Origin: Ruminococcaceae bacterium OttesenSCG-928-A16
GTDB taxonomy: Bacteria > Bacillota > Clostridia > Oscillospirales > Ruminococcaceae
Direction: 5' to 3'
DNA length: 64,000 bases
Assembly: GCA_030267215.1 (NCBI GenBank)
Contig: JAJDJP010000001.1
Coordinates: 124,001-188,000, forward strand
Position 1 is the stretch's first letter. Each line of letters begins with the position of its first letter. Shown here in pieces: positions 1 through 44,038 of this stretch. Under the pieces are notes generated by a model. That model saw only the letters and a list, made by a program, of their open reading frames with translations. It did no database searches and was not told the origin of the DNA. A program made the translations under genes and the position numbers.

Positions 1-455
1 CAGCAGACGATGAATCGGGGTTGGAAGCTGCTGCCAAAATAAAAAAACATTATCCAACCATCAAGGTTATTGCCATGACTTCGATGCCGGAACACTCTTT
101 TATACAAAAAGCAAAGGAGGCCGGTTGCGAAAGTTTTTGGTATAAAGAATATGGCAATATGGAACTGATTGATGTGATGAACCGCACCATGCAGGGGGAA
201 AGTGTTTACCCGGATAAAACGCCTGCCATTGCAATAGGCAATGTAAATAGTGGCGAAATAACCGAGCAGGAAATGATTGTGTTGCGCCAACTTTGCCTTG
301 GCTATAAATACGAGGAAATTGCTGAAAACCTCTCGATAACCCTTAACACGGTAAAATTTCATGCCAAAAACCTGCTGGCAAAAACCGGGTACCGCAGCAC
401 ACTGCAACTGGTGGTAGATGTGGTAAGTAAGCGGCTGGTGCTGCCCAAGTTTTAA
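1..455 (+). CDS. LuxR/NarL-type response regulator, C-terminal part (5' end outside window)
   Basis: Frame is open to the window edge (ADDESGLEAAAKIKKHYPTIKVIAMTS, receiver-like) and ends in a LuxR HTH (LCLGYKYEEIAENLSITLNTVKFHAKNLLAKTGYRS). Confidence 0.85.
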   Translation, partial: ADDESGLEAAAKIKKHYPTIKVIAMTSMPEHSFIQKAKEAGCESFWYKEYGNMELIDVMNRTMQGESVYPDKTPAIAIGNVNSGEITEQEMIVLRQLCLGYKYEEIAENLSITLNTVKFHAKNLLAKTGYRSTLQLVVDVVSKRLVLPKF

Positions 456-620
456 AATGGGTGCCAATTTGCGGCCGATTGAACCGTAGGCCGATAGAGG
501 CAGCGGGGCTTTTAGCGTCGGCTAAAAAAAGCGGAGCTTGCTCAGCGACCGCACGCTGCGTAGCGGCGAGGCTGTTGGACGGTATTGTATCTGCAAATTT
601 AGGTAAAACATTAAATAAAC

Positions 621-1358
621 CTAGCGGGTATAGTCTGCTTCAAACCCTTGCACTGCTTGTTCATCAAACACATAGCATGTGCCTGCGTGCCCGGCAAATG
701 CCCCCACCGGCAGTGTGTGCTGCCCCGCCAAAATGCTTGTTGCAGCGGCTTTTTTGCTGGTGCCAGTGGCAATTATAATAATGCGGCGGGCTTTTTTTAG
801 TGCTTGCAAAGTAATGGTAGCACCCTGCTGCGGGGTGTGCTTGCCGGCAAAATATTTTCGTCCCACGGTTTGGGTTGTTTCGCTTAAAGCAACAAGAGAA
901 AAATCCCCACTGGTGGGTATGCCCGGTTCGTTAAAGCCAATATGCCCATTTACGCCAACCCCTAAAATGGCCAAATCTAACGGGTTTTCATGCAAAATTT
1001 CACGCATGCGTATAAGTTCGGCATCAATGTTTTTGGCACGGCCATCAAAAGCGTTTATCTGCTGTTGTGGAATACCCGCCGGCCAATAATAGCCCTTATT
1101 CATGTAATGCAGGCAACTTCCCTCATCATTGGGGCCCAGCCCAATCCATTCATCAAGGCCAATATACTGGGCTAGGTTTAGCTGCAAGCCCTCGTTTTGT
1201 TGTTTTTGAATAAGGCTGTGATAGCAGGAAAAGGGGGTGTCTCCCGCGGCAAAGGTGGCGGTAAGGCCCGGATTTTGGGCAAACTCTGCCGCTGCCAGCT
1301 TTGCAGCATATAGGCTGGCCTCTTGGTGGTTTTTGCAAATAACTATCTGTGCTTTCAT
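621..1358 (-). CDS. nagB: glucosamine-6-phosphate deaminase
   Basis: Translation has NagB motifs (LDEWIGL, LGVGVNGHIGFNEPG). Confidence 0.9.
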   Translation of the reverse strand: MKAQIVICKNHQEASLYAAKLAAAEFAQNPGLTATFAAGDTPFSCYHSLIQKQQNEGLQLNLAQYIGLDEWIGLGPNDEGSCLHYMNKGYYWPAGIPQQQINAFDGRAKNIDAELIRMREILHENPLDLAILGVGVNGHIGFNEPGIPTSGDFSLVALSETTQTVGRKYFAGKHTPQQGATITLQALKKARRIIIIATGTSKKAAATSILAGQHTLPVGAFAGHAGTCYVFDEQAVQGFEADYTR

Positions 1359-1384
1359 ATATATACCCTTTCATCCGCTGCCTT

Positions 1385-1963
1385 TTATGTAAGGCGGCGG
1401 TTTAGTTTTGCTACCCAAAGCCCAGCAACAGCGGCGGCTACTGTGGTGCCCGCCGGTAGCAGCATGCCCACAACCACCGATACCGAGTTGCTTACGTAAG
1501 CCATTATTAGCGGGACAACAATACGTGCCAGCCCCATAACAACAATTAAAATAGAGGTGGGGAAGGAGGTTTTTCCTTTATATTCCCGCGCGCATTCGCC
1601 AAACAAAACCTGCATAAAGTGGCCACTGCACAACCCCATGCCACCCATAGCAAGGCACATGCCCATTGCACTGCCAGAAAGCACCCCGCCCCCAAGGCAT
1701 ACCGCCGTTGCCAACGCCCCCCAAACAAACAGGTGTGTGGGTGCTATAGAGAGGCGCGAAACCCCAAACCGGTTAATTGTTGCGCAAACCCAATAAACCG
1801 AGATAGAGACAGCGCCCAGTGCCCCGGCATTAAAACGAAGTACCATATAGCGCAATATCCAAACCAAAATACCGGTTTGGGTGGCAGTGGCAAAAATAGA
1901 GGCTACCAGCACGGCAATGTTACGTGGATTTTTAATATAACTTAGCAAATCGTTGCGGCACAG
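1385..1963 (-). pseudogene. MFS transporter, C-terminal half only (5'-truncated)
   Basis: Six hydrophobic segments from SYIKNPRNIAVLVASIF onward; upstream of about 1963 the frame is only antisense of deoC, so the N-terminal half is missing. Confidence 0.7.
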
Positions 1964-1965
1964 GC

Positions 1966-2505
1966 TTGTGCGTGGTGTGTGATTTCCCCTTTGGGCTTTC
2001 GCAAACGGCAAGCAAAATAATGCAGGCAGAGGATATTTGTAAAGAAGGCGATATTGAAGACCTTGATATTGTGGCAAACTATGGCTGGATACGCAGTGGC
2101 ATGTGGGACCAAGTAGGTGCCGAGATTTGTGCAGTGGCAGATGTTGCACACCGGCACGGCACCCTGCTAAAGGTTATTTTTGAAACCGATGCCCTTACCC
2201 TTGATGAGGTAGCAAAGGCCACCGACGTGGCCTGCCTTGCCGGGGCAGATTTTGTAAAAACGTCCACGGGCTTTTTTACCGGCGGTGCAGGCAATGGCGC
2301 CACCCTACAGATAATAAAGGTGATGATGGAGGTGGCTAAAGGGCGCTGCAAGGTGAAGGGGTCTGGCGGAATACGCACACGGCAGCATTTTTTAGAGCTA
2401 ATAGACATGGGGATTGACCGCATGGGCATAGGGTACCGCAGTACCCCAGTGGTTTTGGGGCTGGATACACCCGTAGAAAACGGTGGTGCCTCCGGCACGT
2501 ACTAG
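1966..2505 (+). pseudogene. DeoC-like deoxyribose-phosphate aldolase lacking the N-terminus
   Basis: DFPFGLSQTASKIMQAEDICKEG, FVKTSTGFFTGG and VKGSGGIRT match DeoC internal motifs; the expected first ~65 residues are absent. Confidence 0.75.
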
Positions 2506-2579
2506 GCGGCTGTTTTTGCAACTGGTAAAAGGGAAGTGTCCTATCTGCTTTGCGTTGCTACCGCGTGGGTTTTCTAGCG

Positions 2580-2608
2580 TGTTTTCCCCGCCGTTGTCGG
2601 GGAAAACA
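2580..2608. repeat. hairpin TGTTTTCCCCG/CGGGGAAAACA
   Basis: Perfect 11-bp inverted repeat with 7-nt loop. Confidence 0.6.
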
Positions 2609-2747
2609 TACCCAAGCTCTTTTCTATTACATACGCTTGTGGGGCGCCCAGCAAAAACCGGTGTTTGGTTGGGGGCTAGCAGTTTGTGCCGCTTAAATTT
2701 TGAGATAAACCCACTTGAAATGTATGGAGCAAGACGTACAAAGCCAA

Positions 2748-2789
2748 AGATGGAACAAACCGCAAAGGCGATTTGTTCCATCTTTTTTA
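2748..2789 (+). terminator. rho-independent terminator
   Basis: GATGGAACAAA...TTTGTTCCATC followed by TTTTTT. Confidence 0.8.
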
Positions 2790-2810
2790 TATGCCAATTT
2801 GCGGGCAAAT

Positions 2811-4163
2811 TTAACTTTTAACCGCACTATAAAAAGCCCAGCCAAGGCCGGTGCAAACGGCCCAAACAAGCAAAAACCACACAATGCTAAACCCATGCGC
2901 AAAATAGGCCGCAACCATAATTAACAGGCAGCAGGCAATGGCAAGCACTGGCATCACAAAACGCTTAAAGGGCGGTAAATCTTTTTCTTTTAAAATAAAC
3001 TTGATAAAAATGGGGATATACAATACATACAAGGCCACAATGGGCAGCTCCGAAGAATCGAAGGCGAAAGAGCCAAACCAGCCTTGGGGGGCAAGGTTGG
3101 TGCCATAAAAAAAGGTTAGCCACACAGCGCACATTAAAAGGCCCATTATGCCAGAGTTTGTGGGCATGTTGGTGGACGTATCTACCTGCGAAAGGGTTTT
3201 GGGCGCAGGGCCTTTGCCCCGCACGGCAAGCGCGTATATGCCCCTGGTGCAGCCCATCATAAGCCCGTTTAAGGTACCCAGGCAAGAGATAATTACAAAA
3301 ACAAAAAGTATGCCGCCAAGCCGGCCAAAAATATTTTTAAAGGCAAGCAAAACCCCTTGCTCTCCCTGTTCCATCATAACCTGGTTGCTGGCAGCGCCGG
3401 CCAGCCCAATGTAGTATAGAATATAAACAACCATAACAATTAAGGTGCCAGCGGTAAGGGCCAGCGGCAGGTTCTTTTTTGCGTCCTTCAACTCTGCATT
3501 TATGCTGGTGGCAACAATCCATCCTTCGTAAGCAAACGAAGTAGAAACCACAGCGGTAAACAAGGGGTTGCCGCTAATATCTTGTTGTACAACATTGGTG
3601 AAATTTTGCACAGTGGTGCCGTTTGCAAGGCCAACAACCGTGCCCACAATGGCCATTAGTATTAAGGGGATTAGCTTAATAATAGTGGTGGAAACCTGAA
3701 ACCGCCCCGCCAGCACCGGCGATAACATGCTTAAGGCATACACAGCCACCAAATAAAAGCAAGCCAGCGTCATGCATTCGCCACCGGTAATGGGCCAGCC
3801 AATTAATACACAGGTGTACCGGGCCGAAACCCAGGCCAAAACCGAGGTGATGGCGGGATAATATACAATGGACAAAAACCAGCCGATGTGATAAGCGTAC
3901 TTTTTGCCAACCACCACCTCTGCATAGTCCACCAGTCCATTTACATACTCGTATTTGGCCGCCATGGTGGCAAACACGTAAGCGCAAATAACCATAATTG
4001 CCCCGCCAATGCCCCAGGCCAAAATGCCCAGCGGCAGGTTGCCGCCGGTGGCATTTAGCACACGTTCGGCTTTAAAAAACACCCCGCTGCCCATTACAAT
4101 GCCAATAACCATTGCTATGGCGGTAAACAAGCCATACTTCTTTTTTAGGCCACCATCCATCAA
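2811..4163 (-). CDS. APC-family amino acid permease
   Basis: 450 aa, multi-TM; N-terminal GLFTAIAMVIGIVMGSGVFF typical of APC permeases. Confidence 0.85.
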   Translation of the reverse strand: MMDGGLKKKYGLFTAIAMVIGIVMGSGVFFKAERVLNATGGNLPLGILAWGIGGAIMVICAYVFATMAAKYEYVNGLVDYAEVVVGKKYAYHIGWFLSIVYYPAITSVLAWVSARYTCVLIGWPITGGECMTLACFYLVAVYALSMLSPVLAGRFQVSTTIIKLIPLILMAIVGTVVGLANGTTVQNFTNVVQQDISGNPLFTAVVSTSFAYEGWIVATSINAELKDAKKNLPLALTAGTLIVMVVYILYYIGLAGAASNQVMMEQGEQGVLLAFKNIFGRLGGILFVFVIISCLGTLNGLMMGCTRGIYALAVRGKGPAPKTLSQVDTSTNMPTNSGIMGLLMCAVWLTFFYGTNLAPQGWFGSFAFDSSELPIVALYVLYIPIFIKFILKEKDLPPFKRFVMPVLAIACCLLIMVAAYFAHGFSIVWFLLVWAVCTGLGWAFYSAVKS

Positions 4164-4595
4164 TTTCTACCCCTCGCTAATTATATTTTCAATCTCAAAA
4201 TCCTTGTCCACTATGCCGCTCAATAACGTTACTTTAAGCCAAGCGCACTAGCCGGGCTTTTGGGTCGATTAAACTATATTATCTCTTTTGTGGCGGGGGC
4301 TGTCAATTGTTGGCGCAAAAGATTAAAAGCAAATTTAAAAACCAAAGTTTTGCAAGGAGCTTTGTGCAAACACAAAAAGAATGATAAACACTTGAAAAGA
4401 GAATGTTTGGCGGGTGTTTTGCAAGCTTGTTTAATAGCAAAAAGCAACATACTAAAATCTATTCGGCAGTACAGCCGGTGGACACTTCCGAGTGTAATAT
4501 AGCTTGTTCGGTTTATAAAAAGGGTGCTATAATAAGGTTACTTTTGTTTGAAGTTAAAAATAAGCGAAAATTAGAGCATGGGAGAAACCAGTTAG

Positions 4596-5222
4596 TTGAA
4601 TAATTTAGTTACACTATCCAGCACCGAGGCCCTGCATATTACAGAGGGGGATACGGTGCTTTGTGGCGGTAGCCAAGAGTGGTTTGCCGAGCGTTGGCAG
4701 CGGCAGGCAGGCTGCGGGCCCACAAACTGCGCAGGCCTTTTGTGGCACCTTGCCCAAACAAACCCCCAATGTGCAGCGCTTTGCGTGCATAGCCCCTCCA
4801 GCAAAGCAAATTTTGTTAGCCTAATGCAGGAGGTGTGGGAGTATGTAAAACCCGGCAGCATGGGGGTAAACACCACCAATATTTTTGCCAATGGCGCAGT
4901 GGCCTACGGTAGGCAAAAAGGCGTGGCATTGCAGCCACAAACATTGGATATACCGCCGTTGCATGCGGGTGAGCGCACTTACCCGCCAGTGCAGGCATTT
5001 ATAGAAAAAGCCCTGCAAAGTGGCTTGCCGGTTGCGTTTTTAAATTTATCGAACGGAACCCTTAAAAACCTGGAGAGCTGGCACTGGGTAACCCTTGTAG
5101 CCCTGCGTGGTGGTGAAGCGCTGATGTACGACCAGGCCCAGCCACACTGGATTGACCTTGAGCGCTGGCTTGCAACCTCGGTAATGGGGGGCGGGTTTGT
5201 AACGGTGGCGCATGGGCAATAA
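4596..5222 (+). CDS. C39/papain-like cysteine-peptidase-fold protein, cytoplasmic
   Basis: SQEWFAERWQRQAGCGPTNC (Q...Cys), SWHWVTLVAL (His), MYDQAQPHWIDL (Asp) spacing like C39-type peptidases; no signal peptide. Confidence 0.55.
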   Translation: MNNLVTLSSTEALHITEGDTVLCGGSQEWFAERWQRQAGCGPTNCAGLLWHLAQTNPQCAALCVHSPSSKANFVSLMQEVWEYVKPGSMGVNTTNIFANGAVAYGRQKGVALQPQTLDIPPLHAGERTYPPVQAFIEKALQSGLPVAFLNLSNGTLKNLESWHWVTLVALRGGEALMYDQAQPHWIDLERWLATSVMGGGFVTVAHGQ

Positions 5223-5279
5223 ACCTGGCGCGATAAAAAACCATAATATACACGCGCTGTTTAAACTATGCATAAAATG

Positions 5280-5320
5280 CCCCGCCTTATTGCAGTAATA
5301 GCATAAAGGCGGGGTTGTTT
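5280..5320. terminator. terminator between convergent genes
   Basis: CCCCGCCTTA...TAAAGGCGGGG followed by TTGTTTTG. Confidence 0.75.
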
Positions 5321-5324
5321 TGTG

Positions 5325-5939
5325 CTAATTTAAAAGGCTTACACCACTGTTTTGCAAGGCGGTTTTTAAGGCGGGCATATTGCCCCTAAACACAAACCCC
5401 TGCATCCCTTCGTGGATGGCACTTTCGATATTGGCGGTTACATCGTCGATAAAAAAGCAGGTGGTAATATCTAGCCCAAATTGCCGGCAAAAAGCCCGGT
5501 AAATGGCGGGGTCTGGCTTTAGCAGCCCGCAATCGGCCGAGATAAACTGGCCATCAAAATACTGCAACGCCGTAATTTGCTTGCTAAAGGTGTGGAACAT
5601 TTTGCTGGTATTGGAAAGCAGGTAAATGCCATATCCTTTTTGTTTTAGCTGCCGTATCAACTCTTCCATTTCGGGGTAAAGTGGCACATTGCTATGCCAG
5701 TTTAGCACAAATTGCTGTGCAACGGGGTGTAGGCGGGTGGGTAACCGCTTGCGTATTTGGGTTATGGCCTGCTCGGGGTCCAGGGTGCCACGGTCCAGCT
5801 GCAGCCATTCAACCGAGCCAAAAACCTCGTGCAATAAAATTTCCGCATCTGGCCCGGGTGCAACATGTTGGTGCACATATTCTTTTACTTTATATCGAAT
5901 GAGCACGTTGCCCATGTCGAACACAATGTTTTGAATCAT
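5325..5939 (-). CDS. HAD-superfamily phosphatase (subfamily IA-like)
   Basis: MIQNIVFDMGNVLI, LLSNTS, KPDPAIY, FFIDDVTANIESA motifs. Confidence 0.85.
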   Translation of the reverse strand: MIQNIVFDMGNVLIRYKVKEYVHQHVAPGPDAEILLHEVFGSVEWLQLDRGTLDPEQAITQIRKRLPTRLHPVAQQFVLNWHSNVPLYPEMEELIRQLKQKGYGIYLLSNTSKMFHTFSKQITALQYFDGQFISADCGLLKPDPAIYRAFCRQFGLDITTCFFIDDVTANIESAIHEGMQGFVFRGNMPALKTALQNSGVSLLN

Positions 5940-6049
5940 TTAGTCCTCCGTGTTTTTGGGGTGAGGGAGTTTGCGCAAATCAATTCCCCCACCTGTGGCG
6001 GGGGAATTGGTGCTTTACAATAACAGTAGCTGGCTGGTAAGCGGCGGCG

Positions 6050-7708
6050 CTATACCACCGAAACCTTGCCTTTGCTTACCTTTAAAAAGATGAGTAGTGA
6101 AATAACCGTGCTAACGGTTAAAATAGAGGCAAGCGCGGCGGCGGTGCCATAGCTGTTGCGCACAACCTCGGTATAAATGGCAACCGAGATGGTGCTGGTT
6201 TTGCCGCCGTATAGCATGATGCTGGAGGATAGCTCGTTGATGCAGGTGATCCAGCTGAGGATAGCACCCGAGAAAATGCCGGGGGCCATTAGCCGTGCGG
6301 TAACCTTAAAAAATGTGCGCATTGGCGAAACCCCAAGGCTGATAGAAGCTTCCTCCACGCTGGGGTCCATCTGTTGCAAAAACGCGCTGCCGCTGCGCAC
6401 AGTATAGGGTAGTTTGCGCACCACATAGGCAATAACCATAATGGCAGCAGTGCCGGTTAGCAGCAAGGGGGGCTTGTTAAAAGCAACAATAAGGCTAATG
6501 CCCAAAACCGCCCCCGGTATTACATAGGGGAACATAATCAAAAGATCCATTGCTTGGGCAGCAATACCTTTTTGCCGCACCACAACATAGCTAATTAACA
6601 GCCCTATAATAATGATAAAAACAATGGCCACGGTAGAAAACACAAAGGTATTGCGTATGTTGGTGCCAAGGCGTTTGGCAATGGTAATGTAGCTGTCTAG
6701 GCTAAACCCACCCTGGAAGCCGGTGAAATCGGACTTGATAAAGCTGGTAACCAGCACCACAATTTGGGGCAAAATGCCAATGAAAGTAACCAGCATTACG
6801 GGTATAGAGGTAAGCACCCGTTTAATGCCCTTTAGTTTAATTTCTTGCGGTGGGCGCATCGAGGTCATGGTGTAGTTCTTTTTAGAAACAAAGTGCTTTT
6901 GCAATAAAAGCACCGAAGTAGAGCACAGCACAATAATAACCGAAAGGGCGCTGGCAAGGTTGGCGTTGCCGCCAATTTCGCTCATGTACTCGTTATACAC
7001 CATAACCGGCAGCACGGTGTACCCTTCGCCAATTAGCATGGGGGTGCCAAAATCGGCAAGGCTTGTCATAAAAACCATGATGGCGCCCGCCGCCACCGAG
7101 GGCAGAATAACCGGCAGTGTTACGGTAAACAGCCGCCGCAGTTTGCTGCTGCCAAGGTTTTCGGCCGCTTCTTCCAGGCTAGAATCGATGCTGCCCATGG
7201 CACCCGAAACGTACAGGTACACATAGGGGAATAATTTAAAGGTGAACACCATAATAATGCCGGCCTTGCCGTAAATGGTGGGCAGGGTAATGCCAATGCC
7301 AGAAAACAGGTTGGTGATAAACCCGGCACGGCCAAACAGCATGATCCAGCTATAAGCGCCAATAAAGGGCGGGCTCATCAGGCTCATAATAATAAAAATA
7401 TGAATATATTTTTTAAAAAAGATGTTGTAGCGTGTCATTAAATAGGCCATGGGTACGCCAATAACCATGGTGGTTAGGGTGGCAGTTATCGAAACAAACA
7501 GGCTGCGGCCCAGCGCCTCGTAATAATAGGGTTTGGTAAAAAAACGAATGTAGTTTGCAAGGGTAAGGCCTTCTTCTTTGGGCGAAAAAAAGCTGCGCGA
7601 AATAAGGGTGAAGAAGGGGTAGATAAGAAAAATTAGCATAATGCCAATAACCGCAAACTTTACCCAAAACCAAAAATCGGGCTTAAAGCGGCGCTTTTGT
7701 TTTAGCAT
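6050..7708 (-). CDS. ABC transporter permease, fused two-domain FbpB/AfuB-like
   Basis: 552 aa with two binding-protein-dependent permease domains (EEAAENLGSSKLRRLFTVTLP and EEASISLGVSPMRTFFKVTARLM EAA loops). Confidence 0.85.
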   Translation of the reverse strand: MLKQKRRFKPDFWFWVKFAVIGIMLIFLIYPFFTLISRSFFSPKEEGLTLANYIRFFTKPYYYEALGRSLFVSITATLTTMVIGVPMAYLMTRYNIFFKKYIHIFIIMSLMSPPFIGAYSWIMLFGRAGFITNLFSGIGITLPTIYGKAGIIMVFTFKLFPYVYLYVSGAMGSIDSSLEEAAENLGSSKLRRLFTVTLPVILPSVAAGAIMVFMTSLADFGTPMLIGEGYTVLPVMVYNEYMSEIGGNANLASALSVIIVLCSTSVLLLQKHFVSKKNYTMTSMRPPQEIKLKGIKRVLTSIPVMLVTFIGILPQIVVLVTSFIKSDFTGFQGGFSLDSYITIAKRLGTNIRNTFVFSTVAIVFIIIIGLLISYVVVRQKGIAAQAMDLLIMFPYVIPGAVLGISLIVAFNKPPLLLTGTAAIMVIAYVVRKLPYTVRSGSAFLQQMDPSVEEASISLGVSPMRTFFKVTARLMAPGIFSGAILSWITCINELSSSIMLYGGKTSTISVAIYTEVVRNSYGTAAALASILTVSTVISLLIFLKVSKGKVSVV

Positions 7709-8787
7709 GAAAGCACCTCCTCGGTTTCGTCGGCATACAGGTTAACCTTGCTTGCGTCAAAACCTACGGTTACAGCCTGGCCGTCGGGGCGCACTTCGTT
7801 TACGTCTTTGGTGTATTCGTTTAGCTGTATAGTTTGGCCGTTTTCCAGCTTAATTTCATACTCAATAAAGTCGCCTAAAAACACCGAAAACTCGATGATG
7901 CCGGGCATGCCCTCGCCGGTGGTAAAGGATAATTGCTCTGGCCGGGCAGAAAGGGTGGCCTTGCCGGTGTAAGCTTTGCGCAGGGGTATTTGCACCGGTA
8001 TGGTGTTTTCCAGCAGCACGGTGGCATCTTTGCCTTGGGTGCTGTTTACGGTGGCCGGTATAAAGTTAGATACCCCAATAAAGCTGGCCACAAAGGGGTT
8101 TTGTGGTTTGCGATAAATTTCTTCGGGGGTGCCAACCTGCATAATGTCGCCGTTTTTCATTACGGCAATGCGGTCCGATATCGCAAGGGCCTCCTCTTGG
8201 TCGTGCGTTACATAAATGGTGGTAATGCCAAGGCGGCGCTGCAATTTTTTTATTACCGAGCGCATTTGCACCCGCAGTTTGGCGTCGAGGTTAGAGAGGG
8301 GCTCGTCCATTAGCAAAACGCCTGGCTCGATGGCAAAAGCGCGTGCCAACGCAACCCGCTGCTGCTGCCCGCCCGAAAGCTCGTTGGGTTTGCGGTCTTT
8401 CAACGTGCCAATTTGCACAAGGTCCAATGCTTCCTGCACTTTGGGGGCAATTTGGGGTTTGGGCGTTTTTTTGGCTTTTAGGCCGTAGGCCACGTTTTCG
8501 CTTACGGTTAAATGCGGAAAAATAGCATAGTTTTGAAACACCATGCCAATGTCTCTTTTGTGTGCTTCCATGTTGTTAATCATGGTATCGTCAAAATAAA
8601 TTTCGCCGCCGTCTACACTGTTAAAGCCGGCTATCATGCGTAAAAGGGTGGTTTTACCGCAGCCCGAAGGCCCCAGCAAGGTAAAAAACTCTCCCTTTTT
8701 AATTTCTAAATTAATTTTATTTACGGCGGTAAAATCGCCATATTTTTTTGTGGCATCCTTAATAATTACTGCGTGGCTCATGGCCAA
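7702..8787 (-). CDS. ABC transporter ATP-binding protein (FbpC/AfuC/PotA-like, TOBE domain)
   Basis: Walker A LGPSGCGKTTLL, signature LSGGQQQRVALARA, Walker B LLMDEPLSNLD. Confidence 0.9.
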   Translation of the reverse strand: MAMSHAVIIKDATKKYGDFTAVNKINLEIKKGEFFTLLGPSGCGKTTLLRMIAGFNSVDGGEIYFDDTMINNMEAHKRDIGMVFQNYAIFPHLTVSENVAYGLKAKKTPKPQIAPKVQEALDLVQIGTLKDRKPNELSGGQQQRVALARAFAIEPGVLLMDEPLSNLDAKLRVQMRSVIKKLQRRLGITTIYVTHDQEEALAISDRIAVMKNGDIMQVGTPEEIYRKPQNPFVASFIGVSNFIPATVNSTQGKDATVLLENTIPVQIPLRKAYTGKATLSARPEQLSFTTGEGMPGIIEFSVFLGDFIEYEIKLENGQTIQLNEYTKDVNEVRPDGQAVTVGFDASKVNLYADETEEVLSC

Positions 8788-8815
8788 TCCCTCCCACAGA
8801 GCGTTTGTTTGAATA

Positions 8816-8849
8816 GGGCTGTTGCAAAATGTATGTTTTGCAACAGCCC
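8816..8849. repeat. intercistronic 14-bp perfect stem-loop
   Basis: GGGCTGTTGCAAAA-TGTATG-TTTTGCAACAGCCC between solute-binding-protein and ATPase genes. Confidence 0.85.
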
Positions 8850-8908
8850 TTGTTTAAAATACATGGAAATAAATTTTGCGAAAAAGTAAGGGCTCAATCT
8901 CAAGTGAT

Positions 8909-8991
8909 GTCATTCTGAGGGCGCTTTTTGCCCGAAGAATCTGAATGATGTTGGTTTTGAAAGCAAGATTCTTCACTCCGTTCAGAATGAC
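8909..8991. repeat. 'CHSERSEES'-type palindromic interspersed repeat
   Basis: GTCATTCTGA ... TCAGAATGAC termini with internal GAAGAATCT / AAGATTCTTC; one frame reads CHSERSEESCFQNQHHSDSS. Confidence 0.85.
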
Positions 8992-9050
8992 AAACGAAGA
9001 GGAGCCGCAAAGGCATCGGGTTTGGTGTTTTGGAGGTTTTAAAACACACG

Positions 9051-10127
9051 CTAGCCAACCATAATATCGTTAAAACGTTCCACAATTTGCTCTTTGTCGT
9101 TGGCGGCCCAGTCAAAGTCGTAATCTACCAATACAAGGTCGCTTAGTTTAATCATGCCTTCCACTTCAATGTCGTTGCGCACTGGGCGGCGGCCCCAATC
9201 TTGGCTTTGGCGTAGCTGGCACTCGTACGAAAGAACATAGTCGATAAACAGTTTTGCGTTTTCTTCGTTGGGGGCACCGTCTACCAATGCTACGCCATCC
9301 GGCACAGCCGAGGTACCATCTTGTGGGTAAACGTAACCAACAGTGTCGTCACCATCGTACTGCACGGCAGATTTTTCTAGCGTTAAGCCTACGTAAAACT
9401 CGCCATCTTTTACCATTTTGTGGCATTTGCCGCTAGAGTCCACCATCTTGCCATCCAGGTTGGCGTATAGATCTTCGATAAATTTCCAGCCATCTTCTTT
9501 GCCGCCGTGGCCCAAAATCATGGTAACCAACTGGGTGTAGGCAGAGCCAGATTTAGAGGGCAGGCAGTAGGCAATTTTGCCTTTCCAGGCGGGGTCCAGC
9601 AGGCTGTCCCAGCCGGTGGGCACTTCCAGGCCGTCTTTTTCTAGCAGGGCTTTGTTGTAAAACAAAACCATAGGCAGCGGAGATTCACCAATCCACAAAT
9701 CGTCAGCATCTTTGTAAGCTTCGTCAATCACGTCATCGCTGCTGCAAACATACGGGGCAAAGTGTTCTTTAAAAGCGGCCAAGCTATCGGCGCCTCCGCC
9801 CCAAAATACGTCGGCAATTGGGTTGGCAGATTCTGCCTTAATGCGGTTTAAAAGCTCGCCGGTGCCGGCGGCAACAACTTCTACTTTAATGCTGGGGTAT
9901 TTTTCCATAAAGGCGTTTATGCCGGCGTTTAGTGGGTCGGCATCGTGTGGGGAATACACAACAACGGTGCCGCTATGTTCTTTATCGGGGGTAGAGGCCG
10001 CCGGGGCGGCGCTGCCGGCAGGGGCAGAGGGTGATGGGGTAGAAGCCGGCGTACTGCCACAGGCGGCAAGGCCTGCACATAATAGGGTTGCCAGTAAAAT
10101 TGCAACTGCGCTTTTGGCTCGTTTCAT
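9051..10127 (-). CDS. ABC transporter extracellular solute-binding lipoprotein (AfuA/FbpA-like)
   Basis: Lipobox LLCAGLAACGS; VVVYSPHDADPLNAGINAFMEKYPSIKVEVV. Confidence 0.88.
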   Translation of the reverse strand: MKRAKSAVAILLATLLCAGLAACGSTPASTPSPSAPAGSAAPAASTPDKEHSGTVVVYSPHDADPLNAGINAFMEKYPSIKVEVVAAGTGELLNRIKAESANPIADVFWGGGADSLAAFKEHFAPYVCSSDDVIDEAYKDADDLWIGESPLPMVLFYNKALLEKDGLEVPTGWDSLLDPAWKGKIAYCLPSKSGSAYTQLVTMILGHGGKEDGWKFIEDLYANLDGKMVDSSGKCHKMVKDGEFYVGLTLEKSAVQYDGDDTVGYVYPQDGTSAVPDGVALVDGAPNEENAKLFIDYVLSYECQLRQSQDWGRRPVRNDIEVEGMIKLSDLVLVDYDFDWAANDKEQIVERFNDIMVG

Positions 10128-10357
10128 AATTCAAATCTCCTTTTTAATAGGGCTATGCTACTATAAAATGGGTTTGCTTTATAGCCGATAAATTTGCATG
10201 TAGGGTGGCCACCCTTGCTCTGCTTTTATTATATCGCCCAGCAACGGGGGTTTACCAGCAGGCAAAACTGACATTTGCTTTGTAATTCTGCACTTTTAAG
10301 CATTTTGTGCAAAAAAAGCGAGTATTCATTTTGGAATATAGAGGTTTTGCACAGGCG

Positions 10358-10388
10358 CAAAAAACCGGCATAACCAAAGTTATGCCGG
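10358..10388 (-). terminator. terminator of the two-component/SBP operon
   Basis: On minus strand CCGGCATAAC-TTTG-GTTATGCCGG followed by TTTTTT. Confidence 0.75.
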
Positions 10389-10509
10389 GTAAAATAGTGG
10401 TTTGGCCTTAGAATATTGCACCCTAAACCCCTGCTGGGCACAAAGAAAAGGGGCACCTGAACACAGGGGCTGGTTTAAGGTATGCCAACCCAAAAGGGGA
10501 AGGCACGGC

Positions 10510-11265
10510 TTACTGCCCGCTTGCCTGATATTCTGACGGGGAAAGCCCGGTTAATTTTTTAAACAGGGTGCTAAAATAGGTGGTGTCTTGGTAGCCAACA
10601 GCGTCGGCCACTTCGTATACTTTCAGGCGGCAATCTTTTAACAGTTGCATGGCTTTGTGCATGCGGTAGCGGGTAAGGTAGTTGTTAAAAGTGTGGTTGG
10701 TTTCTTTTTTAAATACCCGGCTAAGGTAACCTTCGCTTATGGCAAGTTCTTCGGCCACGCTTGCCACACTTATGCCCGGCTGCCCATACTGCTGGGCAAT
10801 GCAATCCATTGCCATGGCAACATAGCGGCTTTTGTCTCCCTTTTTTATCTGGAAGGATAAAATATCTTGCTGGGTGGGCGGGTTGTGCTGTTTTGGCAAC
10901 CGGCTTTTTGCTTTTTCTACGGCAGCTTCCAGCTCGCCATCGGCAAAAGGTTTTAGCACGTAATCTACCACGCCTAGCTTTACGGCGCTTTGCGCATAGC
11001 TAAAATCGCTATGGGCAGAAAGGATAATAGCCTCTACCTGTATGCCGTTTTGGGCTAGTTGCGCCAGCATTTGCACCCCGTCCATCTGCGGCATTTTCAT
11101 GTCGGTAATTACAATATCGGGGGCAAGGCGTTTAATAATTTGCAAACCGGCAAGGCCGTTTTCGGCTTCGCCCACCACAACACAGCCCAATTGTGCCCAG
11201 TTAATAGCCAGCACAATGCCTTTGCGCACCAGTGCTTCGTCTTCTACAACAACAACCTTAACCAT
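10510..11265 (-). CDS. response regulator with AraC-type DNA-binding domain (YesN-like)
   Basis: Receiver MVKVVVVEDEALVRKG...DIVITDMKMPQMDG plus AraC HTH C-terminus (VADAVGYQDTTYFSTLFKKLTGLSPSEYQ); start moved to MVKVVV. Confidence 0.88.
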   Translation of the reverse strand: MVKVVVVEDEALVRKGIVLAINWAQLGCVVVGEAENGLAGLQIIKRLAPDIVITDMKMPQMDGVQMLAQLAQNGIQVEAIILSAHSDFSYAQSAVKLGVVDYVLKPFADGELEAAVEKAKSRLPKQHNPPTQQDILSFQIKKGDKSRYVAMAMDCIAQQYGQPGISVASVAEELAISEGYLSRVFKKETNHTFNNYLTRYRMHKAMQLLKDCRLKVYEVADAVGYQDTTYFSTLFKKLTGLSPSEYQASGQ

Positions 11266-12973
11266 CTGCGGCCTCCTTTCGGTTTGGCAAGCGCACCGTA
11301 ATGGTGGTGCCAACCCCGGCTATGGAATGAGCCGACAAACCATACTGCCGCCCGTAGTTCATGCGCACAATGTGGTTTACATTATATAGCCCCAGGTGGC
11401 CTTCTACAATTTGGCTGTCTTCCTGGTGCAGCTCGGCAATCATCTCGGGCGGCATGCCACAGCCGTCGTCGGTAATCGAAATTAGCAAATCGTCTTCATC
11501 GGGCAAGGCGTAAATATAAATATAGCCGCTTTCTTTGCCTTCTAGGCCGTGCATAATGGCGTTTTCTACAAGGGGTTGCAAAATAAGCTTGGGTATCACG
11601 CTATCGGCCAGGGCAGGGGGTAAATCCAGCACATATCTAAACCGCCCCGAAAAGCGAATGCGCTGAATATCGACATAGCTTTGAATCATGTCTAGCTCTT
11701 GCTGCAGGGTAACAAAATTGCCGCCAGAGATACTGCGCCGCAAAATAACGGCAAGGTTGCTGGTGATGGTGGCAATTTGGGGCACATTGTTAATTTTGGC
11801 CAACCACTTTACGGTATCTAGCGTATTGTATAAAAAGTGGGGGTTTAGCTGGGCCTGCAACAGCCTAATTTGAGATTCATCTACCTCGTGCTGCTGTTGC
11901 AGTATGGTTTGCATGTGGGTTTGCAAATCGGTGGTCATCTGGTTAAAGTTTTGGGTAAGCTGGCCCAGCTCATCGGTGCGGCTGGTGCTAATGTGCACAT
12001 TTAAATTGCCTTGTTTAACCTGTGCCATGCCCCGGCTTAACCGGCTAATGGGCCGTGCCAGCCCCCGGCTTAGCAGCACCGAAAAAACAATGCACAAAAC
12101 AAGGCTTACCAGCGCCATAATTAAGCTAACGTTGCGCATGGTGGCAATGGTGCTGCCAGCCAAAATTTTGGGTTGCTGCAACAATAAATAATAACCACTG
12201 CCCGCAAGCACGCTGGGGTAGTATTCATCATCGCCCAGTTGCAGCGTGGTAGCGTTTGCCGCGGCAAGGTGGTTGCGCACGGTTTTAAGGGTTTTTTCGG
12301 GCAGGTTTTGGCGGCGGCTGTACACAAGGTTGCCGGTGTCGTTTAACAAAATGGCAACCTCGTTGCCGCTGTTGTATAAGCCTAAAATATCGGCAAATGC
12401 CGCAGGGGGAAACCCAACAACCGCAAAACCGGTTGCCATGCCGGTGCTGCTGGCAAGTTGCTGCGCCATGTAAAAGTTGTAAACCGGGGTGGTGCCAAAC
12501 CCCTGCACGCTGTACTGCACCGGCCCGCTGGCCTGTGCCGCTTTGTGCAGCACGCCCCAGTGCACCGGCAGCGTGGCATACGCAAGCGAACTATTGGTGG
12601 TAAAACGCAGTTTACCGCCCATATCGTACAACGAAAGAGTAACGTTGCTGGGCAGTTTGCCCAAGGCCTCGTACAGGGCAAGGTACACGTCGTCGGGGCG
12701 GGTACCGCTGTTATCTACCATAGCACGGCTAAAAAAATCGTTTCCATCGGCAACTTGGCCTAAAACACGGGTGCTTTGGGTAAAAACCAAATCCATTTTA
12801 TCGCCCATTTCGGCCAGGCGTGCCTGGGCGGTGGCGGTGGCCTGGTTTTGCACGCTTACGCTAAATAGCTGTGTCATAAGCAGGTTGCCGCCAAGCAAAG
12901 GCAACAAGGCCACCAGTAGGCAGCCTAATAATATGCGGTATTTAAACGAAAGATTGCGCACCCACTTTACCAT
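11258..12973 (-). CDS. sensor histidine kinase (YesM-like: two TM, HAMP, His_kinase, HATPase)
   Basis: HAMP region SRLSRGMAQVKQGNL, LQAQLNPHFLYNTLD, LQPLVENAIMHG, ITDDGCGM. Confidence 0.88.
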   Translation of the reverse strand: MVKWVRNLSFKYRILLGCLLVALLPLLGGNLLMTQLFSVSVQNQATATAQARLAEMGDKMDLVFTQSTRVLGQVADGNDFFSRAMVDNSGTRPDDVYLALYEALGKLPSNVTLSLYDMGGKLRFTTNSSLAYATLPVHWGVLHKAAQASGPVQYSVQGFGTTPVYNFYMAQQLASSTGMATGFAVVGFPPAAFADILGLYNSGNEVAILLNDTGNLVYSRRQNLPEKTLKTVRNHLAAANATTLQLGDDEYYPSVLAGSGYYLLLQQPKILAGSTIATMRNVSLIMALVSLVLCIVFSVLLSRGLARPISRLSRGMAQVKQGNLNVHISTSRTDELGQLTQNFNQMTTDLQTHMQTILQQQHEVDESQIRLLQAQLNPHFLYNTLDTVKWLAKINNVPQIATITSNLAVILRRSISGGNFVTLQQELDMIQSYVDIQRIRFSGRFRYVLDLPPALADSVIPKLILQPLVENAIMHGLEGKESGYIYIYALPDEDDLLISITDDGCGMPPEMIAELHQEDSQIVEGHLGLYNVNHIVRMNYGRQYGLSAHSIAGVGTTITVRLPNRKEAADG

Positions 12974-13003
12974 TATAAACACCTAAACAGTAGTTAATTT
13001 GCC

Positions 13004-14017
13004 CTACAACCCCTGCCAATATGCCAGCACAGGTTCACGAATCTCGGCCGAAAAAGCATAATCGTATTGCAAAACCGTTATTTCGTTTAGCGGCACAAGG
13101 CCTTTGTACTCCTTAATATCGGCCCGTACCGAGCGGCGGCTCATGTCATTCACCAGCATTTGCTGCACATCGCGCGAAAGGATAAAATCGATAAACAAGC
13201 GGGCATTGTTGGCGTTTGGCGCATTTTGCACCAGCGATATTGCGTCTGGCACCACGCTGGTTCCCTCGGTGGGGTACACAATGGCAATGTCGCTGCCGGC
13301 TTGTATATATCGCAGCGCAACTTCCTCCAGCGCTATGCCCACCAAAAAGTTACCGCTGGCAACGGCGGCGGTAATATCGGCCGAACGCTCTACCATTTTG
13401 CCCTGCACGTTGCTGGCAAGTTGTTCCATTTCGGCCCAGCCATTTTGGGCCGATACCTGCATGAGGGTGGAAATTGCAGTAAAGCTGGAGGCGGAAACCG
13501 TGGGGCTGGTAAAGGCAGTAAGCCCCTGCCAGTGTGGCTGCGCCAATTGTGCCCAGCCGGTGGGGGCGTTTTTGGCGCTTACCAGCTTGGTGTTATACAC
13601 CAGCACAATGGGCAGCGCCGAAAAAGGGGTCCACATATTGTTTTCGCTTTTAAAAAATGGCAGCACATTCTCGGCTTCGGGGCTTTGGTAATTTTGAAAA
13701 AACGCCCTGTATGCCTCGTGAGATTCGGCCCCGCCACCAAAAATAACGTCGGCAACAGGGGCGTTGCTTTCGTTGGCTATTTGCTCAAATAAATCTAGCG
13801 TGTTGCCGGTAACCACGGTGGTCCACACGCCGGTACGTTCCTCAAATTCCTTAATAATAGGGCCGTACACATCTAAAGGATGCGAAGTATAAACGGTGAG
13901 TGTTTGCCGTGCACCGGTGGGCAGGGAAGGCGGGCTGTTGTTTGGCATAGCGCAACCCGTTAGCGCAAACAATGCCAGCAACAGGCAAAGCAGTAGCGCC
14001 ATGGCTCGCTTTAACAT
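13004..14017 (-). CDS. second AfuA/FbpA-like solute-binding lipoprotein next to the kinase
   Basis: Lipobox LFALTGCAM; LTVYTSHPLDVYGPIIKEFEERTG parallels the 9051-10127 protein. Confidence 0.85.
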   Translation of the reverse strand: MLKRAMALLLCLLLALFALTGCAMPNNSPPSLPTGARQTLTVYTSHPLDVYGPIIKEFEERTGVWTTVVTGNTLDLFEQIANESNAPVADVIFGGGAESHEAYRAFFQNYQSPEAENVLPFFKSENNMWTPFSALPIVLVYNTKLVSAKNAPTGWAQLAQPHWQGLTAFTSPTVSASSFTAISTLMQVSAQNGWAEMEQLASNVQGKMVERSADITAAVASGNFLVGIALEEVALRYIQAGSDIAIVYPTEGTSVVPDAISLVQNAPNANNARLFIDFILSRDVQQMLVNDMSRRSVRADIKEYKGLVPLNEITVLQYDYAFSAEIREPVLAYWQGL

Positions 14018-29783: not shown

Positions 29784-29835
29784 TGGTGGAAGCGAAGGGG
29801 CTCGAATTCTTGAAAGCCTGCACGTTTTGCTTGTG
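29784..29835 (-). pseudogene. decayed tRNA-Val 3'-half
   Basis: 39/52 identity by eye with the corresponding part of the intact tRNA-Val at 30482-30557, same orientation, CCA end preserved. Confidence 0.65.
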
Positions 29836-29964
29836 CCAAAATTGGGGCAGGCTAATAGGGGCGATAACAATTGCTGTTTGCGTTGTATTTACCACGGAAT
29901 ATCTTGCCTTTTAGTGCTATACTAAGCCTATAAAAGAAACGAACGCAACGAAAGGAAGATTGAA

Positions 29965-30282
29965 ATGGAAAAAGTTTATAAATTTCAGCAGTCCGCCGAG
30001 AAACTGATTGAAAAGATTTTGGATGATGATGTAGCGATGATTAATCACATGATTCTGAACCAGAATGAAGCGCTCCCGCAGCACTATTCCAACTCGAACG
30101 TTTACATGATTATTGTGCGTGGGTGCATCACAGCCCAGCTGGGAGAAAACCCGCCAAAACGCTATGAACACGGAAATCTCTTGAACATTCCGGGCCAAAT
30201 AAAGATGAATATTTCTAACCAAGATGTGGAACAAGCGGAGTTTTTTGTGGTGAAAGCACCTAGCCCAAGGCTTTATAAATAG
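29965..30282 (+). CDS. small cupin-like protein
   Basis: 105 aa, good RBS (GAAAGGAAGA); VYMIIVRGCITAQLGE..RYEHGNLLNIPGQIKMNISN cupin-like. Confidence 0.6.
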   Translation: MEKVYKFQQSAEKLIEKILDDDVAMINHMILNQNEALPQHYSNSNVYMIIVRGCITAQLGENPPKRYEHGNLLNIPGQIKMNISNQDVEQAEFFVVKAPSPRLYK

Positions 30283-30440
30283 CCAGCTGATTTTAATGGC
30301 CTTGCAAAGGGTTAATGCCCGGGTTAACCAATAAATAATGTGAAGTATGAATAATAAAGCAGGAGCTACCCAAAGCGGGTAGTTCCTGCTACTTTTTAAA
30401 CTTTTTAGAGTACGAGTTGACCATTTTGAATTTTGAAAAA

Positions 30441-30476
30441 GAAAAACACCGCCAATTAAGCAAATAATTGACGGTG
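30441..30476 (-). terminator. terminator of tRNA-Val
   Basis: On minus strand CACCGTCAATTA...TAATTGGCGGTG then TTTTTC. Confidence 0.75.
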
Positions 30477-30481
30477 CTACG

Positions 30482-30557
30482 TGGTGGAAGCTAAGGAACT
30501 CGAATCCCTGACCCCCTGCACGTCAAGCAGGTGCTCTACCAGCTGAGCTAAGCTTCC
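30482..30557 (-). tRNA. tRNA-Val(GAC)
   Basis: GGAAGCTTAGCTCAGCTGGTAGAGCACCTGCTTGACGTGCAGGGGGTCAGGGATTCGAGTTCCTTAGCTTCCACCA; cloverleaf, anticodon loop TTGACGT. Confidence 0.93.
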
Positions 30558-43371: not shown

Positions 43372-43445
43372 GCAGGCGTAGTTTAGTGGTAAAACCCCAG
43401 CCTTCCAAGCTGGCTTTGTGGGTTCGATTCCCATCGCCTGCTCCA
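43372..43445 (+). tRNA. tRNA-Gly(TCC)
   Basis: GCAGGCGTAGTTTAGTGGTAAAACCCCAGCCTTCCAAGCTGGCTTTGTGGGTTCGATTCCCATCGCCTGCTCCA; anticodon TCC, encoded CCA. Confidence 0.95.
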
Positions 43446-43454
43446 TATTTAATT

Positions 43455-43524
43455 AAGTCGAACAACCAACACAGCATTTTTGTTTTCCCAAAGATGGTTG
43501 TGTTGGTTGTTTGACTTTAATTTT
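43455..43524 (+). terminator. 19-bp stem terminator inside the islet
   Basis: AAGTCGAACAACCAACACA...TGTGTTGGTTGTTTGACTT (one G-U) followed by TAATTTTTT. Confidence 0.75.
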
Positions 43525-43570
43525 TTATAAAAGTATTAACTTGAATGCAAACTAATTTGAGGAGGTAATT

Positions 43571-43954
43571 GTGGATATTTGGATTCCTGTCTTGGCTGCT
43601 TTAGTAACAGGGTTGATTTCCTTTATAGCTTCGACTATGAAGTCAAGTAAGGAGCTTGACAAAGTCAAAATTGAGAACGAGTCAAAATTGGAGCAATTGA
43701 AACAACAACACCTTGATGAAATGGACAAACTTGAAAAGGAACATCTAGCGGCTATAAAGAAAATGGAAACTGAAGTAGAATTAAAATTAAAGGAATATGG
43801 CGATACAAAAGAAACAGATGTTAAATATGGATTTTTGAATGATATTATAAGGCAAGCTCTGACTAATCCTCAACAAGCTGCTCAAAGTATGGAAGGGCTT
43901 CAAAAACTATCTGATTTGGCAAAGCAGATGTCAAACGATAATGAAAAAAAGTGA
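43571..43954 (+). CDS. orphan membrane-anchored coiled-coil protein, 127 aa
   Basis: GTG start with GGAGGT RBS; N-terminal TM (IPVLAALVTGLISFIAS) then Glu/Lys-rich coiled coil; AT-rich codon usage unlike neighbours. Confidence 0.75.
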   Translation: MDIWIPVLAALVTGLISFIASTMKSSKELDKVKIENESKLEQLKQQHLDEMDKLEKEHLAAIKKMETEVELKLKEYGDTKETDVKYGFLNDIIRQALTNPQQAAQSMEGLQKLSDLAKQMSNDNEKK

Positions 43955-43991
43955 AGATTTTTGTTCGACTTTAGGTAAGATGCCTGCTCCA

Positions 43992-44038
43992 AAAAACAAG
44001 CCCTTGCGCCGTATCCCGGCGCAAGGGCTTGTTTTTTT
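43992..44038 (+). terminator. strong terminator, presumed original terminator of tRNA-Gly
   Basis: AACAAGCCCTTGCGCC...GGCGCAAGGGCTTGTT + TTTTTT. Confidence 0.9.

What the first reader, a model, noticed from the sequence alone, without database searches (positions are those of the whole stretch)
43436..43991. 546-bp mini-islet wedged between tRNA-Gly and its terminator
tRNA-Gly ends ...GCCTGCTCCA at 43445. The same 10 bp recur exactly at 43982-43991, directly followed by a strong terminator (AACAAGCCCTTGCGCC stem + T run) that would have sat right behind the tRNA before insertion. Just inside the repeats lie 11-bp inverted arms: AAGTCGAACAA (43455-43465) and TTGTTCGACTT (43961-43971), 9 and 10 nt from the duplicated core. 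A third one-mismatch copy (TTGTTTGACTT, 43507-43517) forms a new terminator hairpin with the left arm. The interior is visibly AT-rich against GC-richer neighbours and holds a single ORF. The layout resembles tRNA-targeted integration by a tyrosine recombinase acting in trans, with no integrase of its own. The core is short, so coincidence or an ancient scar must be excluded.
Basis: partly seen in the sequence, partly recalled or inferred. Interest (0 to 1): 0.75.

Follow-up and report, generated by a model that had tools for sequence, protein, structure and literature searches.

The report
Single-gene islet behind a tRNA gene
A 546-base foreign piece, carrying one gene of a family found in prophages and restriction-modification operons, has been slipped in between a glycine tRNA gene and its transcription terminator; it is most likely the stripped remnant of a larger integrated element that has lost its own integrase.

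Summary
The tRNA-Gly end GCCTGCTCCA recurs 546 bp downstream, directly in front of a perfect 21-bp terminator stem. In other genomes of the family, stand-alone tRNA-Gly(TCC) genes mostly have their terminator 0-8 nt behind CCA, so the second copy is the old tRNA/terminator junction and the 546 bp is an insertion. The islet is the most AT-rich stretch of the window. Its single 127-aa gene (membrane helix plus coiled coil) belongs to phrog_2542, a family carried by Streptococcus prophages and, in gut Clostridia, mostly lying inside type I or III restriction-modification operons. Four same-genus genomes lack the gene; one shows an islet-free locus, another a tyrosine-recombinase island with type I RM genes behind tRNA-Gly. 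No integrase, sibling copy or mobiliser was found, so 'moved in trans' is unproven; I read it as a decayed, att-flanked island (CIME-like). The 'third arm copy' is just the other half of the islet's own hairpin terminator. In a sister genus, a structured non-coding unit repeats behind many tRNAs and deserves its own study.

The parts
43372..43445 (+). tRNA-Gly (TCC), the target gene, downstream of clpC
   Evidence: ARAGORN and Rfam RF00005
43436..43445 (+). core copy 1 GCCTGCTCCA: 3' acceptor strand, discriminator base and CCA of tRNA-Gly (left end of the islet)
43451..43527 (+). islet-borne hairpin terminator behind the tRNA; its ascending strand contains the left arm AAGTCGAACAA (43455-43465), its descending strand the 'third copy' TTGTTTGACTT (43507-43517); T-rich tail follows
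   Evidence: RNA fold -37.8 kcal/mol, z -9.6; inverted repeat I2
43511..43539 (+). weak promoter-like pair TTGACT-17-TATTAA for the islet gene (read by eye; below the threshold of the promoter scan)
   Evidence: sequence reading; not listed
43571..43954 (+). only ORF of the islet, 127 aa: N-terminal transmembrane helix plus coiled coil, phrog_2542 family
   Evidence: (E 3.6e-15)
43961..43971 (+). right arm TTGTTCGACTT, perfect inverted copy of the left arm
43982..43991 (+). core copy 2 GCCTGCTCCA, the displaced tRNA-Gly 3' end (right end of the islet)
43991..44037 (+). original tRNA-Gly terminator (21-bp perfect stem), now behind the islet; probably also terminates the islet gene
   Evidence: family comparison

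Best explanation
A tyrosine-recombinase element once integrated at the acceptor-stem end of this tRNA-Gly gene, using GCCTGCTCCA as the shared core. The element-borne copy kept the tRNA intact, and the host's own tRNA tail and terminator were pushed to the far side. The element has since lost everything, its integrase included, except the two attachment-site flanks, a hairpin terminator that now closes the tRNA transcript, and one intact cargo gene. That gene encodes a small membrane-anchored coiled-coil protein of a family otherwise found in prophages and inside restriction-modification operons, so its most likely role is accessory to defence or phage exclusion. Shown: the insertion, its ends and its composition, the absence of the gene from four same-genus genomes, an islet-free locus in one of them, and the gene family. 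Inferred: the recombinase class, the loss by deletion, and the defence-type role.
For: Exact displaced tRNA 3' end at the far end. In the family, stand-alone tRNA-Gly(TCC) genes mostly have the terminator 0-8 nt behind CCA, as it is behind the second copy; some even share the CTCCA-AAAAACA-stem form. Same-genus G003 shows clpC-tRNA-Gly-terminator without islet. The gene is absent from all four same-genus genomes. Lowest GC of the window. The cargo is phrog_2542, found in Streptococcus prophages and lying inside or beside RM operons in most relatives. In same-genus G002 the tRNA-Gly(TCC) gene is directly followed by a ladder of recombinase genes (two with Phage_integrase hits), a DUF6262 gene and type I RM genes, so this tRNA is used as an integration site in the genus. 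The second, older integrase-less islet at tRNA-Val in the same window, absent in G001, G003 and G004, fits a genome that keeps such leftovers.
Against: The core is only 10 bp. No intact relative with these arms was found, so the parent element and the deletion are not seen. The one gene is intact and tightly packed between the ends, with no pseudogene debris, as a purpose-built cassette would be. The genome is a 78% complete MAG in 95 contigs, so a parental copy could be missing.
Confidence: 0.6

Rival explanations
1. A minimal non-autonomous cassette that is still mobile: the two ends rejoin to a symmetric site (TTGTTCGACTT-10 nt-GCCTGCTCCA-9 nt-AAGTCGAACAA) cut by a tyrosine recombinase supplied in trans by another element.
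For: Perfect core and perfect arms at symmetric distances; one complete gene with its own ribosome-binding site and terminator; eight places with tyrosine-recombinase genes elsewhere in the genome, several close to other tRNAs.
Against: Single copy; arms unique in 378 kb of the genome that was read; no copies or same-ended elements elsewhere.
Confidence: 0.22
2. The repeat is the tail of a decayed second tRNA-Gly gene (an old tandem tRNA duplication), with a foreign gene inserted between them by some other route.
For: tRNA genes are often clustered in this family; GTTCGA, the T-loop motif, lies in the right arm upstream of core copy 2.
Against: Upstream of the 10 bp there is no further tRNA homology in register (GTTCGA is 5 nt too far; extends the match to 10 nt only); the terminator sits exactly 0 nt behind the copy; arms flank both ends.
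Confidence: 0.1
3. Coincidence: a vertically inherited gene lies between tRNA and terminator and the 10-mer repeat is accidental.
For: A 10-bp core is short.
Against: 0 matches in the 833-kb reverse-strand control, exact abutment to the terminator, gene absent in the genus, lowest GC.
Confidence: 0.03

Closest known systems
CIMEs, cis-mobilizable elements (PMC7563491, PMC5704250)
   Same: Flanked by attL- and attR-like repeats at the 3' end of a housekeeping gene, no recombination or mobilisation genes, cargo only; defined as decayed ICEs or IMEs. CIMEs are reported at tRNA-Lys in Streptococcus agalactiae (cited in PMC7563491).
   Different: Classical CIMEs there are 1.2-13 kb and microCIMEs 130-220 bp without genes; this one is 546 bp with one gene, and no ICE or IME parent was identified.
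tRNA-targeted genomic islands as mapped by Islander (PMC4383910)
   Same: Intact tRNA gene followed, same strand, by a displaced 3' fragment of itself.
   Different: Islander requires an integrase gene and at least 2 kb, so islets like this are filtered out by design.
Recombinase ladders of the Tn554 / GInt type (PMC5385486), as in same-genus G002 behind tRNA-Gly
   Same: Same tRNA gene used as target; RM-type cargo in G002.
   Different: The G002 island carries several recombinase genes plus a DUF6262 gene; its end sequence is unrelated to the islet's ends, and the GInt paper does not mention tRNA targets.
Tycheposons (described in PMC10872708)
   Same: tRNA-bordered, cargo-carrying elements moved by tyrosine recombinases.
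   Different: 4-200 kb with their own XerD-type recombinase; none here.
phrog_2542 proteins of Streptococcus prophages (e.g. KT337359, Javan427, Javan617) and Bacillus phage SPbetaL2
   Same: Same size, N-terminal membrane helix plus coiled coil; in the Streptococcus phages the gene lies in the early region near the repressor.
   Different: 26-29% identity; there part of a full prophage.

Membership tests
CIME (cis-mobilizable element) | Retains attachment sites at both ends | tested here: met
   10-bp core at both ends plus inverted arms; by sequence only
CIME (cis-mobilizable element) | No recombination, conjugation or mobilisation genes | tested here: met
   single 127-aa ORF, phrog_2542
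CIME (cis-mobilizable element) | Derived by deletion from an ICE or IME | tested here: inconclusive
   no parent element with the same ends found
CIME (cis-mobilizable element) | Can be mobilised in cis after accretion | not testable with these tools
   needs an experiment
microCIME | 130-220 bp and no gene (PMC7563491) | tested here: not met
   546 bp with one gene
tRNA genomic island (Islander definition) | tRNA gene plus displaced same-strand 3' fragment | tested here: met
tRNA genomic island (Islander definition) | Integrase gene inside, length 2-200 kb | tested here: not met
   no integrase, 546 bp
Tycheposon | Own tyrosine recombinase, 4-200 kb | tested here: not met
   definition from PMC10872708
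phrog_2542 protein family (the cargo) | Profile match over most of the length | tested here: met
   E 3.6e-15, residues 3-121 of 127
phrog_2542 as part of an RM operon | Located within a restriction-modification operon, usually between modification or specificity and restriction genes | tested here: not met
   most relatives do; the islet gene is alone

The most novel reading that the evidence does not exclude
The islet is a living minimal cassette: one defence-type gene between symmetric recombination sites, moved between tRNA-Gly genes by integrases borrowed from other elements, and one of a wider, overlooked class of sub-kilobase elements that settle between tRNA genes and their terminators in gut Clostridia. 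The tRNA-Val islet here and the structured 130-180-nt units of a sister genus could be further members.
Probability: 0.15. Interest if true: 0.75.

Novelty: new member of a known kind. Interest (0 to 1): 0.4.

Why it matters
Island finders such as Islander discard anything under 2 kb or without an integrase (PMC4383910), so leftovers of this kind are not counted. This case shows that a single cargo gene can persist at a tRNA with intact attachment-site flanks, where a later element could pick it up, and that the gene kept is an orphan of a family tied to restriction-modification operons and prophages. It also gives a simple recipe, the tRNA tail repeated directly in front of a terminator, for a systematic census.

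Tried and rejected
Protein scan of genome contigs and viral contigs with the islet protein: no relatives at that sensitivity. Islet DNA in phages and islet protein in plasmids: none. Patterns of core plus arms in IMG/VR: hits were chance matches in coding DNA. Core plus left arm in 386 family genomes: only this locus is behind tRNA-Gly; two other matches have unrelated spacers and were not examined further. The other GCCTGCTCCA copies in the genome that were read (8 of 11) have no tRNA near them. The idea that phrog_2542 genes are generally tRNA cargo: three lie behind tRNAs (here, G283 behind tRNA-Arg, G378 behind tRNA-Trp with a broken ORF), but most lie inside RM operons, so it is not a rule. 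Rfam on the islet: nothing above a gathering score except the tRNA. The islet's hairpin and arms were compared by eye with integron attC core motifs (GTTRRRY / RYYYAAC) and do not fit.

Full report
WHAT IS THERE. tRNA-Gly(TCC) lies at 43372-43445 behind clpC. Its last ten bases, GCCTGCTCCA, recur at 43982-43991 and run straight into a 21-bp perfect terminator stem. Between them is one ORF of 127 aa with a good ribosome-binding site. The arms AAGTCGAACAA and TTGTTCGACTT are at the stated places. The so-called third copy is the other strand of a long hairpin that begins with the left arm. That hairpin is the terminator the tRNA now uses, so the three arm copies reduce to a terminator plus one extra inverted copy at the right end.

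IS IT MORE THAN CHANCE? In 97 tRNA loci with 833 kb of downstream DNA, the exact last ten bases of the tRNA recurred six times downstream and never on the opposite strand. Five of the six lie within 700 bp: both tRNAs of this window, a tRNA-Ile in an rRNA-type spacer, and two tRNA-Gly loci of another genus. Arms of this quality at both ends arise in 0.055% of shuffles, but an 11-bp inverted repeat somewhere in so AT-rich a sequence is common (27%), so the arms alone would not carry the case. The islet has the lowest GC of any 546-bp stretch tested in the window (33.7% against 49.9%).

IS IT AN INSERTION? Yes, by comparison. Among stand-alone tRNA-Gly(TCC) genes of the same family the terminator mostly begins 0-8 nt behind CCA, with exceptions at 16 and 25 nt. 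In the window this is true only of the second copy (0 nt). Several relatives show CTCCA followed by AAAAACA and a stem, as here. G003, of the same genus, has clpC, tRNA-Gly and a terminator with no islet. None of the four same-genus genomes has the gene, although those assemblies are 63-94% complete.

WHAT DOES IT CARRY? The protein matches phrog_2542 (E 3.6e-15) and is 26-29% identical to proteins of Streptococcus prophages and of SPbetaL2. In the Streptococcus phages the gene lies in the early region near the repressor and, where annotated, the integrase. In Clostridia most relatives found sit inside or beside restriction-modification genes. In type III operons they lie between Mod and Res, and in type I operons among HsdM, HsdS and HsdR. 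Three are behind tRNA genes: this one, G283 (tRNA-Arg) and G378 (tRNA-Trp, with an in-frame stop). G283 and a genome of another genus (G101) share a 548-column alignment of the gene with its near flanks (87% identity) in unrelated surroundings, so genes of this family can move as small pieces. The N-terminal membrane helix and the coiled coil are read from the sequence. The defence-type role is inferred from neighbourhood only.

WHO PUT IT THERE? The layout is the signature of tyrosine integrases at tRNA genes (Islander principle, PMC4383910). In same-genus G002 the tRNA-Gly(TCC) gene is directly followed by an island with successive recombinase genes (two with Phage_integrase hits), a DUF6262 gene, and type I RM methylase and specificity genes. 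The target is therefore in use in this genus, for RM-type cargo, although the ends of that island do not resemble the islet. No element with the islet's own ends was found in 386 family genomes, IMG/VR or phage records. The genome has other tyrosine-recombinase genes, several near other tRNAs, but the arm sequence is unique in the 378 kb that I read.

REMNANT OR CASSETTE? One deletion from just behind the gene to just inside the right end would turn an ordinary island into this islet, and integrase-less leftovers flanked by att sites (CIMEs) are common where they have been looked for (PMC7563491). The same window holds a second such leftover: behind tRNA-Val (30482-30557, minus strand) a 42-nt displaced tRNA-Val fragment, 34 of 42 identical, stands before a terminator about 690 bp away, with a single 105-aa ORF in between. 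Three same-genus genomes have a plain tRNA-Val with its terminator. I therefore favour a remnant (0.6) over a trans-mobilised cassette (0.22), but the perfect ends and intact gene keep the second open.

SIDE FINDING. In a sister genus (G187, G374, G336) a 130-180-nt non-coding unit follows at least seven different tRNAs. Each copy begins with an inverted copy of that tRNA's own T-arm (exact in 8 of 12) and ends with a direct copy of that tRNA's own tail (last 18 nt exact in 9 of 12), far closer to its own tRNA than to the others. The unit has a branched secondary structure in which 15 of 36 pairs show changes on both sides and matches no Rfam family. It is not homologous to the islet and is absent from G000, but it is unexplained and worth a separate study.

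LIMITS. The genome is a 78% complete MAG; only one genome per species could be searched; no metagenome scan was available; nothing here shows present-day mobility or function.

Noticed in passing
window 29784-30557 (minus strand): Second tRNA islet in the same window: tRNA-Val(GAC) 30482-30557, then a terminator, one ORF (29965-30282, plus strand, 105 aa; cupin-like by eye, no Pfam hit) and a displaced 42-nt tRNA-Val fragment (29784-29825, 34/42 identical) directly before another terminator. tRNA-Val is followed by a plain terminator in same-genus G001, G003 and G004; a 78%-identical copy of the ORF's DNA lies elsewhere in the genome (G000:C22) beside a ferredoxin gene..
   Followed up: partly
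L184-L206 (genomes G187, G374, G336; sister genus): Dispersed 130-180-nt non-coding unit behind many different tRNA genes (Gly, Lys, two Ser, Glu, Arg, Gln; tandem at Glu). Left end is an inverted copy of the target tRNA's T-arm, right end a direct copy of its tail followed by a second, often near-identical terminator. Covarying branched structure (15 of 36 pairs with double changes), no Rfam match, no IMG/VR hit. Looks like an undescribed structured element that copies or adapts to its target..
   Followed up: partly
L109, L113, L217, L218, L220, L221, L227, L231-L235, L237: A small membrane-helix plus coiled-coil gene (phrog_2542) recurs inside type I and type III restriction-modification operons of gut Clostridia (e.g. 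Mod-X-Res, HsdM-HsdS-X-HsdR). No defence model of PADLOC covers it convincingly..
   Followed up: partly
L124 (G002, same genus) 1-13837: tRNA-Gly(TCC) is directly followed by an island with successive large recombinase-type genes (398, 733 and 534 aa; two with Phage_integrase hits), a DUF6262 gene and type I RM methylase and specificity genes; its end next to the tRNA carries repeats of TATGCACGATA..
   Followed up: partly
L108 and L110 (G283 and G101): The phrog_2542 gene with its near flanks aligns over 548 columns (87% identity) in two genera in unrelated surroundings, with a small inverted repeat before the gene: possibly a mobile single-gene unit..
   Followed up: no
L151 (G000:C64) tRNA-Ile: In what looks like an rRNA spacer (tRNA-Ala, tRNA-Ile), the last 15 nt of tRNA-Ile recur 78 nt behind the gene..
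   Followed up: no
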